DNA from: Verrucomicrobiales bacterium
GTDB lineage: Bacteria > Verrucomicrobiota > Verrucomicrobiia > Verrucomicrobiales > V1-33
Assembly (NCBI GenBank): GCA_028293125.1
Contig: JAQGPJ010000080.1
Location: 1-51,833, forward strand
Length of the DNA stretch: 51,833 nt
Direction: 5' to 3'
This document shows, in pieces, positions 6,225-12,232 of the stretch (the first letter of the stretch is position 1; every line of letters starts with the position of its first letter). Below the pieces are notes generated by a model that saw nothing but the letters and a program-made list of their open reading frames with translations, was not told the origin of the DNA and made no database searches. A program made the position numbers and the translations under genes.

Positions 6225-6367
6225 GATACTGCCGGACGGCGGGCGAGCTGTCGAGTGGTTGAAATTTAAAATTGTATAAAGATTCCGGTGCTTGCCGGCT
6301 TCACTTTGGCGGAGCGGTTGTTCAGTCGTTTTATTGACATTTTTCGCTATGCTCCGAGACTGAGATT

Positions 6368-6727
6368 ATGGCCGATCTTGACATATTTATGAGAAATTCG
6401 GTATGGGAAAAGGTAGTGGAAACCATATCACATATGCTGGGAGTGGCGGGATTCGAGAAGAGGGATGAACGCGGGGTAAGGCACGTATGGTATCTATTTG
6501 GAATGGAAATCATTGCTATCGATGATCCGGATCTTGTGGATGACCAAGGCATCCCTTTCTCGGAATTTTCTACTGAAGTGGCTTTGATTCTGCACAGGAC
6601 GGAGCATTGGGAGGAGGCAGAGGCTTTCCGTCATGCTTTTGCGGTTCTTCTTGTACTGCGTTTAAGAAATTTGATAGGTTCGAGTATTTATATGGTCAGG
6701 AATCTTCAACAGGAAATTAAAGTGTGA
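6368..6727 (+). CDS. Hypothetical protein, AT-richer than its surroundings
   Basis: A 119-residue protein with no family I recognise. It begins MADLDIFMRNSVWEKVVETISHMLG. The middle (RHVWYLFGMEIIAIDDPDLVDDQGIPFSEFSTEVALILHRTEHWEEAEAF) looks like a mixed alpha/beta fold rich in acidic residues, and the C-terminal helix (FRHAFAVLLVLRLRNLIG) is amphipathic. Base composition and codon use are clearly more AT-rich than the flanking genes, which suggests recent arrival. Small acidic single-domain proteins of this kind include immunity proteins and antitoxins, but nothing here proves such a role. It stands alone between the divergently transcribed CE15 gene and a repeat-rich intergenic region. Confidence 0.6.
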   Translation: MADLDIFMRNSVWEKVVETISHMLGVAGFEKRDERGVRHVWYLFGMEIIAIDDPDLVDDQGIPFSEFSTEVALILHRTEHWEEAEAFRHAFAVLLVLRLRNLIGSSIYMVRNLQQEIKV

Positions 6728-6765
6728 GGATTTTTCGTCATTGACGTGAGGAAAATAAATTTGGT

Positions 6766-7050
6766 TCTTCCGGGTTTCCCGTGGTCGTGGAACCAAGGAA
6801 AGATGCGAATTTCCGGGAACCCAATGGCCCCGGAGAGTCCTCGTCACCACGAGGGTTTCCCAGCGGGAAACCCATACCGTCTTCCTCTCGGATTTGGAAC
6901 GGAGCGCAGGGCAAAACCGATATAAGCGCCGAAGGCCGAGCGCCAGCGAGTTATGCTGGTTTTGCCTTGTGCGGAGTGGAAAATCTGCCCCTCCCTCATC
7001 CGAGAGAGCCACTTGGTTGAAGGCAAGCACACCACGGAAAACCCGGAAGA
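6766..7050. repeat. MITE-like element with 20-bp terminal inverted repeats
   Basis: The 375-bp gap between 6727 and 7103 has no gene. The left end TCTTCCGGGTTTCCCGTGGT (6766-6785) and right end ACCACGGAAAACCCGGAAGA (7031-7050) are inverted repeats matching at 19 of 20 positions. Weaker pairing continues outward into AT-rich flanks. Inside are a perfect 9-bp hairpin (GGGTTTCCC at 6853-6861, GGGAAACCC at 6865-6873) and a longer imperfect palindrome whose core is GGCAAAACC at 6910-6918 with GGTTTTGCC at 6958-6966; G-U pairs extend that stem to about 15. The size, terminal inverted repeats, internal structure and lack of coding resemble a non-autonomous transposon (MITE). No clear target-site duplication is seen. 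The structure could also act as a transcription barrier between the genes. Confidence 0.55.
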
Positions 7051-7102
7051 GGCACCTAATTTTAACTCAATCAAGGAAACGTTTCTGATAATAAAGCCAC
7101 CC

Positions 7103-10100
7103 TCATTCCGTATGGACGCGGATACGGACAAAATTGCGCATTCCCGCACCGACAGGCTTCGGTGAACGCCACAGCATCCGGATCCATCCGTCCGCCGCTT
7201 CCCCGATTGGCAGGGACGCCGCCGGACTGCCGCGCCAGCCAGCCACGGCACCGGTGGAAAAGCTGCCGGCAGAGGGATCCGCCGCCGTTTCAATGATATA
7301 ATTCAAAGCAGGGACCAAGGTGTTGGGGGTGGAATGAATCCAGTACCGGAGTTCAGGAACTTTCCCGCCGCTGACCGGGTCCGTTCCCAAGCTGTAAACC
7401 GGCATCCCCGGCTGGGTGGCAGTCCCCTCTAGCACAGTGTTCCTTTGAGTTGGGTCGGAACCGAAGGCGTGCTCCAGAAGATTGGAGACTCCATCACCGT
7501 CGGGATCGGCATCCGGGCCCGCCCTCCCGCCGGATAGGTCAAAGGATGCGGCCCAGGCCGGATAAAAGTCCTTGGATGCCGGGCTGATGGTCAGATTGTC
7601 AATACGGACAGGGCCGCCCGAGGCTTCAAGATTGAGCCGGCCATCGGGGAGCAGTAGGGCATCGGAGTCAAACCTTACCAGCGTCCATGAGGTGGCGTTC
7701 AGATTGACGGACCCGTCGCCATATTTAAGGAGGCCACTGGAGTTCAGAGTCCGGGCATAAAACGAGACTTTGCAGGGCACGGGCAGAGGCAGGAGAAGCC
7801 GCCGGGAGGGACCAGGATAAAGGACCACACAATCCACTCCATCCTTTGCCAGAGCGGCGAAAGCGCCGGCGGCGTGGCCGGAGGAATCCACCGCCTCAAA
7901 ATCCCTCAGAGATGAGTCCAAAGCCTCCGCCGCTGTAAGCGTGGGCAGCGGCTGGAAATGCACGGCGTCCAGCAGCACCGGTCCGGAGCCGGTGGTGCCA
8001 AAGTGGATCACATGGGTGCCATTGGGCACCGGCACCTCTGTTAAAACGTAGCCTGACCCATTGCTGTTGAATGCCGCCTCATCCATCCGGATGTAGGCTG
8101 ATCCCTTGATCCTGGCTCTCAGCAGCCCCGGCCCCTGCACGGTGGTGGTGATCGCGGAGCGGGTGTAGGAGGGAGTGAATTTCAGAGCGTCGCCGCCCTC
8201 AAACGTATCTGCTGACACCGCCTCCAAAACCACATTGGCCGCCTGCCATTTAAGTTCCGGAGCCTCCACAAGCGCTCCGATATCCGTTCCGGATTCAGGG
8301 GTCACCGCAACATTCGATATCACCGTCGTTATGGCTCCATTCCGGGCGCGCACCGGACTATAGGCCAGCCGGACAGTATGCAGCCCCTCAGGAACCGAAA
8401 ACGCGGCCGCATCGAATGCGCTGAGGCTGCTGCGCACTGGCAATGTGGCTGCCGCGCCGTCAATCTCCACTGTAAAACCGGCTATTTCATCCTCAGGGGG
8501 AAGCTGCCCGGTCACATTGACTTTGGCAGGCCCGGTCATCTGTGTCTGCATCCAGGCGGTCTGTCCTATAACCAATCCCCGGCACTGCACCGCATCAGGA
8601 TCATCCGTCAGTCCCGCACCATGGCCGGAAAAACCGCGCCATCCTGTGCCTCCACTGGATCCCGAAGTCCAAACGAGGCTTGGAGTATCCAGCGCTTCGG
8701 GCAGATCCACCTCCACGGCGGCTGCGAATTCCACCGAATCCACCAACAGCACCGCCCCTTCCGGCAAAGGACCAGGAGACGACGCTCCGCCTGTGAAAAT
8801 CAGAGGGCTGGTTAAAACACCGCGGGGTGCGGCAAAGTTCTTCGGCAGCCAGGGATATGGACCCAGATAAAAGCTGGAGCCGGGTGCTGTGCTGCCATTC
8901 CCCTCCGTTTTGGCAACCATAGTGAAATCACCCGGTCCGGCGGGAATGGGCATCACGGAAAGCGGTGCCGCCACCCTGAGCGCCGAACGCCCCTCCACCG
9001 TGGCCGCCGTCCAGCCTGGCAGACTTCCCCAAGGCTGAAGCGGGCCAAAGGGCTGACCTTGCTGCGTCAGAAAAGCCATGCCTGCGGCACCTGTGAAATC
9101 CTGCAGGGAGACCGCAGGCGCGGACTCCAGTGCCACCCCTTTCAATGTGAGCTCCTGGCTGGACTGCGTTCCCGGCGGCTGGTCCGCGGAAAGCTGCCAG
9201 CGGATCCGATGCTGCCCGACGGGAAGGTGCAGATAGCCTGTGGCGGGGGAACCCGGCACGGGGATGTCATTCCACAGCATGGTGTAAGCCGAAATGGTGG
9301 CCGATGAATCCGGTGGCACCGCCTGCCAGCGAAGAACCCCGGGACCGGTCGCCCGGGTTTCGATCCAGGACACCTCTCCGGGCATCAGATTGCCGGTCAC
9401 CGCGTGAAGGGGCGTGCCGTCGGCGGAGGCCTCGCCCATCCATGGCACGTCACCTCCGGTTTCCCAAGTCAGATCCGGAGCGCCCGCGGCTGTTCCCAGC
9501 GGGATGCCGGGCCTCGCCTGCAAAGGCACGGCGATATTCCGGGAGGGGGAAATCGAAAGGGAGGATGACAGTCCGGTGATGATTTTATGCGAACCGGGAA
9601 ATGGAAGACGACCGGTCGCGTGCCTCATGCCAAGGTCCGGCAAAAGCACCTTGTCCCCCCGCGAAAAGGAGCATGGACCGGTGACGGTGGCTTCAAGATA
9701 GTGTTTTCTTGTTCCCCCTGCGGTGTCCGGGGTGAGCAACATCGGGTCTGCGGGGTTGTCCCTGTTGCCCAGCCAGTCCATGGACCGGCTGATGAAATGC
9801 CACACGGGATTCTCCCCCCAAGTGGGGGCTCCGGCAGCCGTGAACGGCAGGCGCGTCAGGGCCGCAAAATTGTCCAAGACCGCGCATTGCCCGGGGATGG
9901 CGGAGAAAGTGATCCATCCCGGTCCGTAACCGGGCACCGTCATATAAGTGGTGCCCCATTGCCCGTCCCCAGCCATGGGCAATGGACCTTCCGGTGTGGA
10001 CAAAAGCAGGCCGCTGCCGGTGAAGCGGACCACACAGGGACGCTCCACGATGGTCGAAAGTGTTGGTGACGTGTCTGCCAAGGGAGTGAAAACCACGCTG

Positions 10101-12232
10101 GTTCCCCCCGCTGCCGAAGGCGGCCAGGCCACTGCCGTCAAACCATCGGTTCCGCCCGCCGTGCTCCAGCTGCGGGTCCCTGACTCCAGCGCGTCCCTCA
10201 GGGAAACCGTCGGTGATGGTGTGAATGAGACCTGATCCAGCCAGGACAGGGTCCCTTTGCCCTGCGGCACCTGCGAGCCCCGCTGGATCCATCTCACGGT
10301 GTGCGTGCCCGCAGCGACAAAAACCTCGGAAATTTCCGGCGAAGCCGAATCCTGCGGAACGGCTGTGGCTCCATTCACGGTCACTCTCAGCGGGAGAATA
10401 AAATCGGCGGTGAAATCCCCGGGATCGGAGGCGCTCCTGGCCATGGCGAAACGGACAATGCCCGGGCCGGTGATCCGGGTCTCAATCCACGGATTGGCCT
10501 CCACCGCATGGACACCGCCGCAGGCCGCGTGCCCTGCCGCGGCTCCAAGGACTCCATCCGTTTTGTATCCTTTCCACGGCGTGGCAGGGGAAGTGGTGAA
10601 AACCATATCCGGAGCATCCAGAGCCTCGGACAAAGACACCTCCACCAGAGGTTGAACTTTGAGCCCGCTGTAAACCCCCAAATCATTGATCTCCACCGAG
10701 TGGGGCAGGGTGTCCGGAAAAATAACGGCAAATTCCTGCGGGCGGCCCGGTGCCAGACTGTCAGCAGCCGCGATATTCGGGCCGCCATCCGCACTGAAAT
10801 TCCGCGGGGTTTGGGAAAACCCGGAAGTGGTGAAGCTCACCATCGCCGGACCCTGGCACGCGATCCTCAGCAGTGGGAGCTTTGGGGGCGGCAGGTCTCC
10901 ATACCATGGCATCAGCTCCAGCCCGGTGGCGTCCCCGGTGCCTGTGGCTCCGGCCTTCCCCGCCACCTGGCCAGGGTATGGGAGGGTCACATCGGCTCCC
11001 GGCTGTCCCATCAGAGCCGCCAAATCCGGCCCGCCTGGAACCCAGGATACATCATCCAGCCAGCCAATGCCAATCAGCTTCAAATCCACCGTCCCCGCCG
11101 GCACCGCAATTTCATCCCGCTCCCATTCCGTGGAGTCCGGCAATAAATACGGCGCGGTCTCCCCGATGTAGCCCCTGACAAAACCCAGCTTTGAAAACTT
11201 CAGAATCCCGGGACCCGTCAGCCCTCTGATCACCAGACAGCCGTCCGCAGGCTGCGACGAGGCCATGGCCACCGCATGGCCTCCCTTGGCACCGGTCGGA
11301 GCCTGCGTGCTGGCAAAAGCCCCCAGCCGCCGCGTGCCGCCTTCAGGCTTTCCATACTCGTAGACCAATCCGGTGGAATCCAGCGCCTGGGCGTAGGAAA
11401 GCGGGGCGCTGATTTTCAGCTGATCCACGATGCCGGAGCCGCCATTCCGCCGCCATCCCACCGGCACTTTCCCGGCGGCCACTCCGAACTGCCTGCGCCC
11501 GCCGACCAGGAATTCTCTTGGCGGTTCAGGCCCGGCGTCAGGAGTGGCCTCCAGCTGAGTCTGCGCTGTGCCTTCAAAGGAGACCACGGCCGGCCCGGTG
11601 ATCTCAGTCAACAGGACCTCATTTTCATGCAGCCACACCGCATCCACGCCATCGGGGGCATCCGCATCCGCAATCCCGCGTGAGGCGGAGTCAGGGCCTG
11701 GCTGGGAAAACTCCACTCCCGGAGCCTCTAAAGCTTCGCTTAACGGAACCAAGGGAGCCGGCGTCACTGTGACGGTGTCAATATAAAGAGGATTGCCGGT
11801 GGGATAAGCTTGGTTGGTGATGCGGAAAACGCCAGGCAGCACCACCAGCCGCTCCTGTTTCCAAAAACTGGCGGTGATATTCTCACTCCGCCCGCCGTTA
11901 TGAATGATGGTGAAATTCGTGGTGCCCGCCAGATCCCGCGACCGGTGCCGGAAAGTCACGATTGAAGGCTGGCTGATAGTGGTCTGAATCCAGGCCTCCG
12001 GGTTGGAGGTGCTGACAGGATCCGGCTTCAGCCGCACGGCATCCACTCCGTCGAAAGTGGCTCCGGATTCAATCACCCCCTCCACCGGCCCTCCGGAGGT
12101 CCAAACCAGTTCCGGCGTGTCCAGAGCCTCCGGCAAAGTCTGGGCGGAGACCGTGCCGGCGGGCAGAATCAGCAGAAGAGGAGACGCCAGCAACCAGCAG
12201 ACGGCAGGGGACAGAGGTTGGGTGCTTTTCAC
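7103..12232 (-). CDS. Giant secreted repeat protein (1709 residues)
   Basis: The protein starts with a signal peptide (MKSTQPLSPAVCWLLASPLLLILPAGTVSA, then QTLPEALD). Almost all the rest is about 11-12 divergent tandem modules of roughly 110-150 residues. Each begins near (L/V)xxALDxPxLVW(T/S)xGG. Most contain DGVDAV, then W(I/M)(E/Q)TxxTGPxxVxF in the middle and a (V/L)PxGxHxVRW...LDxVxFxP ending. This pattern occurs in secreted Verrucomicrobiota and Planctomycetota proteins and probably forms a chain of beta-sandwich domains. Near the C-terminus lies GPDADPDGDGVSNLLEHAFGSDP, a thrombospondin-3/EF-hand-like calcium motif common just before the last domain in these bacteria. The likely location is the cell surface or outside medium, with an adhesion or carbohydrate-binding role; the exact function is unknown. 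It is a single-gene unit downstream of the polysaccharide-export remnant. Confidence 0.85.
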   Translation of the reverse strand: MKSTQPLSPAVCWLLASPLLLILPAGTVSAQTLPEALDTPELVWTSGGPVEGVIESGATFDGVDAVRLKPDPVSTSNPEAWIQTTISQPSIVTFRHRSRDLAGTTNFTIIHNGGRSENITASFWKQERLVVLPGVFRITNQAYPTGNPLYIDTVTVTPAPLVPLSEALEAPGVEFSQPGPDSASRGIADADAPDGVDAVWLHENEVLLTEITGPAVVSFEGTAQTQLEATPDAGPEPPREFLVGGRRQFGVAAGKVPVGWRRNGGSGIVDQLKISAPLSYAQALDSTGLVYEYGKPEGGTRRLGAFASTQAPTGAKGGHAVAMASSQPADGCLVIRGLTGPGILKFSKLGFVRGYIGETAPYLLPDSTEWERDEIAVPAGTVDLKLIGIGWLDDVSWVPGGPDLAALMGQPGADVTLPYPGQVAGKAGATGTGDATGLELMPWYGDLPPPKLPLLRIACQGPAMVSFTTSGFSQTPRNFSADGGPNIAAADSLAPGRPQEFAVIFPDTLPHSVEINDLGVYSGLKVQPLVEVSLSEALDAPDMVFTTSPATPWKGYKTDGVLGAAAGHAACGGVHAVEANPWIETRITGPGIVRFAMARSASDPGDFTADFILPLRVTVNGATAVPQDSASPEISEVFVAAGTHTVRWIQRGSQVPQGKGTLSWLDQVSFTPSPTVSLRDALESGTRSWSTAGGTDGLTAVAWPPSAAGGTSVVFTPLADTSPTLSTIVERPCVVRFTGSGLLLSTPEGPLPMAGDGQWGTTYMTVPGYGPGWITFSAIPGQCAVLDNFAALTRLPFTAAGAPTWGENPVWHFISRSMDWLGNRDNPADPMLLTPDTAGGTRKHYLEATVTGPCSFSRGDKVLLPDLGMRHATGRLPFPGSHKIITGLSSSLSISPSRNIAVPLQARPGIPLGTAAGAPDLTWETGGDVPWMGEASADGTPLHAVTGNLMPGEVSWIETRATGPGVLRWQAVPPDSSATISAYTMLWNDIPVPGSPATGYLHLPVGQHRIRWQLSADQPPGTQSSQELTLKGVALESAPAVSLQDFTGAAGMAFLTQQGQPFGPLQPWGSLPGWTAATVEGRSALRVAAPLSVMPIPAGPGDFTMVAKTEGNGSTAPGSSFYLGPYPWLPKNFAAPRGVLTSPLIFTGGASSPGPLPEGAVLLVDSVEFAAAVEVDLPEALDTPSLVWTSGSSGGTGWRGFSGHGAGLTDDPDAVQCRGLVIGQTAWMQTQMTGPAKVNVTGQLPPEDEIAGFTVEIDGAAATLPVRSSLSAFDAAAFSVPEGLHTVRLAYSPVRARNGAITTVISNVAVTPESGTDIGALVEAPELKWQAANVVLEAVSADTFEGGDALKFTPSYTRSAITTTVQGPGLLRARIKGSAYIRMDEAAFNSNGSGYVLTEVPVPNGTHVIHFGTTGSGPVLLDAVHFQPLPTLTAAEALDSSLRDFEAVDSSGHAAGAFAALAKDGVDCVVLYPGPSRRLLLPLPVPCKVSFYARTLNSSGLLKYGDGSVNLNATSWTLVRFDSDALLLPDGRLNLEASGGPVRIDNLTISPASKDFYPAWAASFDLSGGRAGPDADPDGDGVSNLLEHAFGSDPTQRNTVLEGTATQPGMPVYSLGTDPVSGGKVPELRYWIHSTPNTLVPALNYIIETAADPSAGSFSTGAVAGWRGSPAASLPIGEAADGWIRMLWRSPKPVGAGMRNFVRIRVHTE

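What the first reader, a model, noticed from the sequence alone, without database searches (positions are those of the whole stretch)
6766..7050. MITE-like element of 285 bp between an orphan gene and the giant repeat protein
The ends TCTTCCGGGTTTCCCGTGGT and its inverted partner match at 19 of 20 bases. They enclose only structured non-coding DNA: a perfect 9-bp hairpin and an imperfect palindrome with a 15-bp G-U-tolerant stem. That is the layout of a non-autonomous transposon or a REP-like family, seen directly in the sequence. Its mobility is inference; no target duplication is clear.
Basis: partly seen in the sequence, partly recalled or inferred. Interest (0 to 1): 0.5.

Follow-up and report, generated by a model that had tools for sequence, protein, structure and literature searches.

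The report
ISL3 mini-transposon carrying structured RNA-like core
This short stretch is a small, gene-less jumping element whose ends match a full-size ISL3-type jumping gene elsewhere in the same bacterium, and inside it sits a folded, evolutionarily conserved RNA-like segment that, in related bacteria, lies in front of that kind of jumping gene.

Summary
In detail: inverted ends match 19/20, and both strands fold far better than shuffles. The element is a few bases longer than stated (6763-7056). The MITE reading holds for the family. Its ends match a complete ISL3-family insertion sequence in the same genome (left 22/24; inner right arm 22/22) that has a perfect 8-bp target duplication. A covariance model finds 14 elements, this one included, at E<=0.001 in the genome. 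Of 12 with both ends read, four have perfect 8-bp duplications and one 7/8; mismatched flank pairs give 0/132 perfect. The window copy shows no clear duplication, and none of 12 relatives carries its flanks.

The new part is the interior: an ~110-nt core, found as a pattern in 26 of 387 phylum genomes, with a long covarying stem, fixed CGGAAUAA / UUAUGCCGGAUU strands and a variable inner hairpin. Covariation far exceeds shuffled and slid controls; in 42 of 43 cores the same strand folds better. In other families the core lies inside ISL3 elements, between left end and transposase gene, antisense to it. No Rfam family matches. I read the window element as a deletion derivative keeping this leader. 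That the core is an antisense regulatory RNA is inference, untested.

The parts
6763..6786 (+). left terminal inverted repeat, GGTTCTTCCGGGTTTCCCGTGGTC
   Evidence: 22 of 24 identical, counted by eye, to the GGTTCTTCCGGGTTTTCCGTGGTG end of the ISL3 insertion sequence on C118 of the same genome
7030..7056 (-). right terminal inverted repeat, minus strand GGTGCCTCTTCCGGGTTTTCCGTGGTG
   Evidence: inner CTCTTCCGGGTTTTCCGTGGTG 22/22 identical, counted by eye, to the other end of the same insertion sequence; GGTGC instead of GG at the tip
6763..7056 (.). whole MITE (294 bp)
   Evidence: ends as above; the ten other own elements with both ends read and no nested insert are 262-278 bp
6839..6854 (+). 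hairpin 1 CCTCGT-CACC-ACGAGG
   Evidence: sequence; an equivalent hairpin of different sequence (e.g. GCCCTTCAGAAGGGC) lies at this place in other copies (by eye)
   Evidence: I8; hairpins of other sequence at this place in relatives (by eye)
6883..6995 (+). conserved structured core (covarying outer stem, ATAA 6922-6925 / TTAT 6951-6954, inner hairpins)
   Evidence: R2 match 60.4 bits, E 1.9e-16; R1 match 6836-6989, 114.2 bits, E 1.1e-26; the window segment is in the training set of both models
6937..6950 (+). inner hairpin CGAGC-GCCA-GCGAG with a tandem G.A mismatch, loop one base longer than in most relatives
   Evidence: sequence reading; the tandem G.A reading is mine and was not computed

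Best explanation
[quoted passage not shown] It consists of two ISL3-type ends plus a structured core, and it moves (or moved) by an ISL3 transposase acting on its ends in trans; in this genome the best candidate is the complete ISL3 element on contig 118 (open frame 451 aa). SHOWN: end identity, a dispersed family with 8-bp duplications, ISL3 elements in other families with the same core between left end and transposase gene, and base-pair covariation of the core. INFERRED: that the window element arose by deletion of the transposase gene from a core-bearing ISL3 element; that this copy itself transposed; that the C118 enzyme is the helper. The core probably had its function in the autonomous element's leader, where it lies antisense to, and beside the predicted promoter of, the transposase gene. 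In the MITE it may be a passenger.
For: Ends; complete ISL3 element with perfect duplication GTTAAAAT on C118; ISL3 family by Pfam PF01610 and NCBIfam NF033550, both over cut-off. Family: 17 model rows at E<=1, i.e. 16 elements (two rows are one element split by a nested insert); 14 at E<=0.001, window included (150 of 2219 candidates were scored, so a lower bound; eight of these elements besides the window's were in the model's training set). Duplications: of 12 own elements with both ends read, 4 are 8/8 and 1 is 7/8; 132 mismatched flank pairs give 0 at 8/8 and 1 at 7/8. A published ISL3 element, ISArsp7, has GGCTCTTCGCG... ends, and it and two other ISL3 entries have 8-letter direct repeats (PMC6305408, Table 3 passages). 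Leader: inverted ends bracket core plus transposase gene in L057, L066, L067 (20/22, 18/20, 20/21) and, weakly, L071 (8 bp), 4 of 10 loci given; all 6 listed core/PF01610 pairs within 1 kb on one contig have the core antisense and 5' of the gene (the list is cut). L069 keeps the core next to only the C-terminal third of a transposase, as a deletion intermediate would. Covariation: 136 double-change cells against 46.6+-6.7 shuffled and 34-58 slid.
Against: No clear target duplication at the window copy; 7 of 12 own elements, this one included, lack one. No empty site could be shown: 0 of 12 relatives carry the flanks. The ISL3 loci of this genome have no core match (0 of 9), so the core-bearing ancestor is not seen here. 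Among the 12 elements read, the window copy is the only one with GGTTCTTCC ends; the others have GGCG- or GGCA-type ends. Of 26 core-bearing phylum genomes 8 have no PF01610 match, though 18 of 26 against 124 of 361 is an excess (Fisher p 6e-4). Of 25 R1 loci from other genomes only 9 have a transposase-like match, and in one of them, L056, a weak match lies on the same strand as the core, not the opposite one. Of four elements only L057 has a full 8-bp flank match; L071 shares 6 bp; L066 and L067 have none that is clear.
Confidence: 0.86

Rival explanations
1. The core is a functional structured RNA encoded by ISL3 elements on the strand opposite the transposase: an antisense regulator of transposase expression in the manner of IS10 RNA-OUT or ISPpu9 Asr9. 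MITE copies could supply it in trans. (This adds to, rather than replaces, the MITE reading.)
For: 43 distinct cores (the window's own did not fit the pattern and is not among them): the core strand folds better than its complement in 42, by 8.7 kcal/mol on average over all 43 (p 6e-8), and has more G-U pairs (p 1e-6). Covariation in 34 sequences. Fixed strands with a variable inner hairpin in 26 of 387 genomes, 0 with the reversed control. A TTGACA or TTGACT box lies beside the core on the transposase strand in 6 of 6 leaders. In ISPpu9 the antisense RNA is complementary to the 5'-UTR; a fusion with eight transposase codons made it and one with two did not (PMC8450116, abstract and passages).
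Against: No transcript data. The antisense-promoter test did not separate core-bearing from coreless ISL3 genes: 3 of 7 coreless genes also score 9-10 of 12. In L073 the other strand folds better, and the whole window element shows no strand preference in energy. Sequences are related, so the p values overstate independence. I saw no promoter by eye 5' of the core in the window copy and ran no promoter scan there.
Confidence: 0.35
2. The core acts as DNA: a cruciform or hairpin bound by transposase or a host protein near the end of the element.
For: Covariation and G-T tolerance would also arise for a single-strand DNA hairpin; in L057, L066, L067 and L071 the core lies within about 100 bp of the left end.
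Against: ISL3 loci of other phyla (0 of 6) and of this genome (0 of 9) lack it, so it is not needed for ISL3 transposition in general.
Confidence: 0.2
3. REP-like palindromes mobilised by a RAYT (Y1 tyrosine transposase).
For: Structured, dispersed elements; GTAG repeats are reported for the verrucomicrobium O. terrae (PMC3733652, passages).
Against: No PF01797 match in the genome at E<=0.001; 8-bp duplications and ISL3 ends are, from general knowledge, not REP features.
Confidence: 0.02
4. A stationary structured RNA gene or intergenic regulator with chance inverted ends.
For: Strong fold; full-length unit single copy; no clear duplication at this copy.
Against: Ends nearly identical to a transposon's ends; dispersed family with duplications.
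Confidence: 0.03

Closest known systems
ISL3-family insertion sequences and their deletion derivatives
   Same: GG-YTCTTC-type ends, 8-bp target duplications in the family, DDE_Tnp_ISL3 transposase in the genome
   Different: carries an ~110-nt covarying core with no model match in the 6 ISL3 loci of other phyla and the 9 own ISL3 loci examined
ISPpu9 Asr9 antisense sRNA (PMC8450116; abstract and passages seen)
   Same: non-coding segment upstream of and antisense to a transposase gene
   Different: other transposase; no transcript shown here; no sequence relation tested
IS10 RNA-OUT (recalled; the start of the PMC5006887 abstract, seen in a listing, mentions antisense-RNA-dependent repression of IS10 transposase)
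   Same: antisense position at the transposase 5' end, stable hairpin
   Different: from recall, RNA-OUT is smaller and not known from MITEs; expression of the core is unknown
REP elements of RAYT transposases (PMC3733652; passages seen)
   Same: palindromic, dispersed, non-coding
   Different: no RAYT match; ISL3 ends and 8-bp duplications

Membership tests
MITE | short, no transposase gene, terminal inverted repeats | tested here: met
   294 bp, ends 19/20
MITE | ends match an autonomous element in the genome | tested here: met
   22/24 and 22/22 with the C118 ISL3 element
MITE | several dispersed copies | tested here: met
   14 elements at E<=0.001, 16 at E<=1, window included; but this exact unit is single copy and none of the 11 other elements read has its end type
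MITE | target site duplication at this copy | tested here: inconclusive
   3/8, best shifted 6/8
MITE | empty site in a relative | tested here: inconclusive
   0 of 12 family genomes carry the flanks
ISL3 derivative | 8-bp duplication in the family | tested here: met
   4 of 12 perfect, 1 of 12 7/8; control 0 of 132 perfect, 1 of 132 7/8
ISL3 derivative | transposase of ISL3 family present | tested here: met
   9 PF01610 places in the genome, 2 covering the whole profile; NCBIfam NF033550 over cut-off for L045 and L046
ISL3 derivative | mobilisation by that transposase | not testable with these tools
   needs an assay
REP/RAYT | Y1_Tnp (RAYT) gene in genome | tested here: not met
   0 matches at E<=0.001; the search rings in 5 of 14 control genomes
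antisense sRNA of an IS (RNA-OUT/Asr9 type) | antisense position to transposase 5' region | tested here: met
   6 of 6 listed pairs within 1 kb (list cut); L056 is a weak contrary case
antisense sRNA of an IS (RNA-OUT/Asr9 type) | antisense promoter | tested here: inconclusive
   one search did not discriminate
antisense sRNA of an IS (RNA-OUT/Asr9 type) | transcript | not testable with these tools
   no RNA-seq
known Rfam family | covariance-model match | tested here: not met
   no match over the core at E<=1 in the window stretch 6300-7300 and 28 loci

The most novel reading that the evidence does not exclude
A structured RNA family not in Rfam is encoded by ISL3 insertion sequences of Verrucomicrobiota, antisense to the transposase leader. 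It persists in MITEs under different end types because a trans-acting RNA (repressor, sponge or cofactor of transposition) is itself selected: an RNA-bearing hitch-hiker whose ends match whichever ISL3 enzyme is present.
Probability: 0.2. Interest if true: 0.78.

Novelty: new variant of a known kind. Interest (0 to 1): 0.52.

Why it matters
MITEs are usually treated as empty deletion products defined by their ends. Here the interior is the part conserved across families of a phylum while the ends change, and the same interior sits in ISL3 elements as a structured leader. If it is an RNA, ISL3 elements would join the insertion sequences that encode their own regulatory RNA, and MITE copies would be a ready source of it in trans. 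That is directly testable by strand-specific RNA-seq and stem mutants.

Tried and rejected
REP/RAYT origin: rejected, no Y1_Tnp match. Known Rfam RNA: no core match in three searches. A regulatory element fixed at this locus: not supported, flanks unmatched in 12 of 12 relatives. Antisense promoter at the transposase start as evidence: dropped, coreless genes score as high. Viral contigs: the pattern gave 4 stretches; L109 has an ISL3 gene beside the core, and L110-L112 do not fold into the core structure and look like chance matches (by eye). L007 and L008 look like chance matches (by eye). An outward promoter and a terminator role for the stem were considered on the sequences and not pursued.

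Literature: ISL3 with Verrucomicrobia and MITE gave 0 papers. Searches pairing Verrucomicrobia with REP, ISL3 or MITE with non-coding RNA, ISL3 with circular intermediates or ends, insertion-sequence antisense RNA, ISL3 with antisense or small RNA, Verrucomicrobia with structured RNA and MITE with conserved RNA structure listed no title that names this core. Only the 4 to 20 best rows of each were shown, as titles and starts of abstracts; passages were read in PMC3733652, PMC4133298, PMC8715038, PMC6305408, PMC10266640 and PMC8450116. Absence from print is not shown.

Full report
WHAT IS THERE. Comparison with a complete insertion sequence places the ends at 6763 and about 7056. The window is contig 4 of a 6.48-Mb genome in 120 contigs. 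The host group is inferred: a same-order genome's contig (G092 C58, 56,764 bases) has the length and core position of DLGZ01000015.1, Verrucomicrobiaceae bacterium UBA7681.

A FAMILY IN THE GENOME. By plain DNA search the 285-bp unit is single copy, with two partial matches to its middle. A covariance model R1, built from 16 related segments including the window's, finds 17 rows at E<=1, i.e. 16 elements, 14 of them at E<=0.001 (a lower bound, 150 of 2219 candidates scored). I could read both ends of 12. Besides the window copy these begin GGCG or GGCA and end in CACC, CGCC or CGC. Four have perfect 8-bp target duplications (ATGTATTT, ATTAAATA, AAAAAGGC, AAATCATG), one has 7/8; the other seven, the window copy (3/8) among them, have 0 to 4 of 8. 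Among 132 mismatched flank pairs none is perfect and one is 7/8. So the family transposed; that this copy did is inferred.

THE HELPER. The genome has 9 PF01610 (DDE_Tnp_ISL3) places. One on C118 is a complete ISL3 element with ends GGCTCTTCCGGGTTTTCCGTGGTG and GGTTCTTCCGGGTTTTCCGTGGTG and the perfect duplication GTTAAAAT. The window's ends match these at 22/24 (left) and 22/22 over the inner right arm, counted by eye. An own-genome search with a 19-base end pattern found 11 places at up to 3 mismatches (reversed control 1): the window's two ends, the C118 pair, one end beside what reads as an antisense transposase remnant on C100, and six others with 1 to 3 mismatches. The GGCG-type elements resemble the GGCGCTACAGGAAT-like sequences near the transposases of L045, L047, L048 and L049, a second ISL3 type here. 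Pfam and NCBIfam confirm ISL3. In PMC6305408, Table 3 passages, the ISL3 element ISArsp7 has GGCTCTTCGCG ends, and three ISL3 entries have 8-letter direct repeats. No Y1_Tnp match was found.

THE CONSERVED CORE. Elements with the same middle occur beyond this genome. A 37-base pattern with up to three mismatches hit 5 of 189 order genomes, the own one included. An exact 29-base pattern hit five contigs of four named genomes, titled Verrucomicrobia, Verrucomicrobiales, Verrucomicrobiaceae or Spartobacteria. R1 matched 21 of 387 phylum genomes at E<=0.001, and the general pattern CGGAATAA-N8-38-TTATGCCGGATT hit 26 of 387, with 0 for the reversed control. In alignment A3 (34 sequences) 22 pairs are predicted, 13 with double changes. 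Counted against controls, 91.2% of cells pair (shuffled 74.0), 136 cells have changes on both sides (shuffled 46.6+-6.7; slid by 1-3 columns 34-58) and the covariation score is 0.470 (shuffled 0.155); the number of pairs with a double change, 13, is a weaker signal (28 of 500 shuffles reach it, and one slid version too). Across 43 distinct cores, poor ones included and the window's not among them, the core strand folds better in 42 (not in L073), by 8.7 kcal/mol on average (Wilcoxon p 6e-8), with more G-U pairs (p 1e-6). These sequences are related, so the p values are guides only. By eye, the inner hairpin often keeps a tandem G.A mismatch while its sequence changes (GGGAGC..GCGACC, GCGACC..GGGAGC, CGAGC..GCGAG); the window copy keeps it with a loop one base longer, but lacks the GA bulge of most relatives. 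No match over the core was found in Rfam at E<=1 in the window stretch and 28 loci.

WHERE THE CORE BELONGS. Of 25 R1 loci from other genomes (L054-L078), 9 have a transposase-like match by tblastn: L056, L057, L058, L059, L066, L067, L069, L071, L072. I gave ten loci to an end search: in L057 (20/22), L066 (18/20) and L067 (20/21) inverted ends bracket core plus transposase gene, in L071 only an 8-bp pair. The other six gave nothing I accept: L059 and L084 show only short chance-like pairs, L072, L109 and L015 none, and L005's core did not fit the script's pattern. L057 has CGTTTTCT on both flanks, L071 shares TTATCC, L066 and L067 have no clear duplication. All 6 listed core/PF01610 pairs within 1 kb on one contig have the core 5' of, and antisense to, the gene (G399, G506, G231 twice, G233, G450; the list is cut). 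L056 is a weak contrary case (same strand). L069 retains the core with only the C-terminal third of the gene. Of the 26 core-bearing genomes 18 have PF01610, against 124 of 361 others (Fisher p 6e-4). Model R2, built from A3, found no core in 6 ISL3 loci of other phyla or in the 9 own ISL3 loci.

HOW IT MOST LIKELY WORKS. The window element is a transposase-less ISL3 derivative moved in trans. Its core is inherited from the leader of an autonomous element. In 6 of 6 leaders examined a TTGACA or TTGACT box lies next to the core on the transposase strand, in one (L059) with TACAAT 17 bases on, so the core sits beside the likely transposase promoter. That, the strand bias and the covariation favour an antisense RNA, as reported for ISPpu9 Asr9 (PMC8450116; abstract and passages). 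A test for an antisense promoter did not discriminate, so I give this 0.35. A DNA-level structure is the main alternative.

LIMITS. No transcript, transposition or empty-site evidence (0 of 12 relatives carry the flanks). The core-bearing autonomous ancestor was not found in this genome. R1 and R2 were trained on sets that include the window core, so their scores for it are not independent.

Noticed in passing
L040 (G000 contig 7, about 512-787); 409-bp element: A second, unrelated ~130-bp MITE-like insert with ends CTTTGGTAAATTAA... sits inside the core of one of the related elements, splitting its hairpin.
   Followed up: partly
L069 (G430 contig 58): Core next to only the C-terminal third of an ISL3 transposase: looks like an intermediate between full element and MITE.
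   Followed up: partly
L056 and L065: Core variants with ATATAAG...TTATGCTG like the window's, apparently lacking the usual GA bulge: a possible subclass (by eye).
   Followed up: no
G336, G472, G503, G231, G198: Core copies within the first 75 bases of several contigs, as expected if multi-copy core-bearing elements break the assemblies.
   Followed up: no
window 7103-12232 minus; 6368-6727 plus: The 1709-aa protein and the 119-aa orphan on either side match no Pfam or NCBIfam family at E<=0.001.
   Followed up: no
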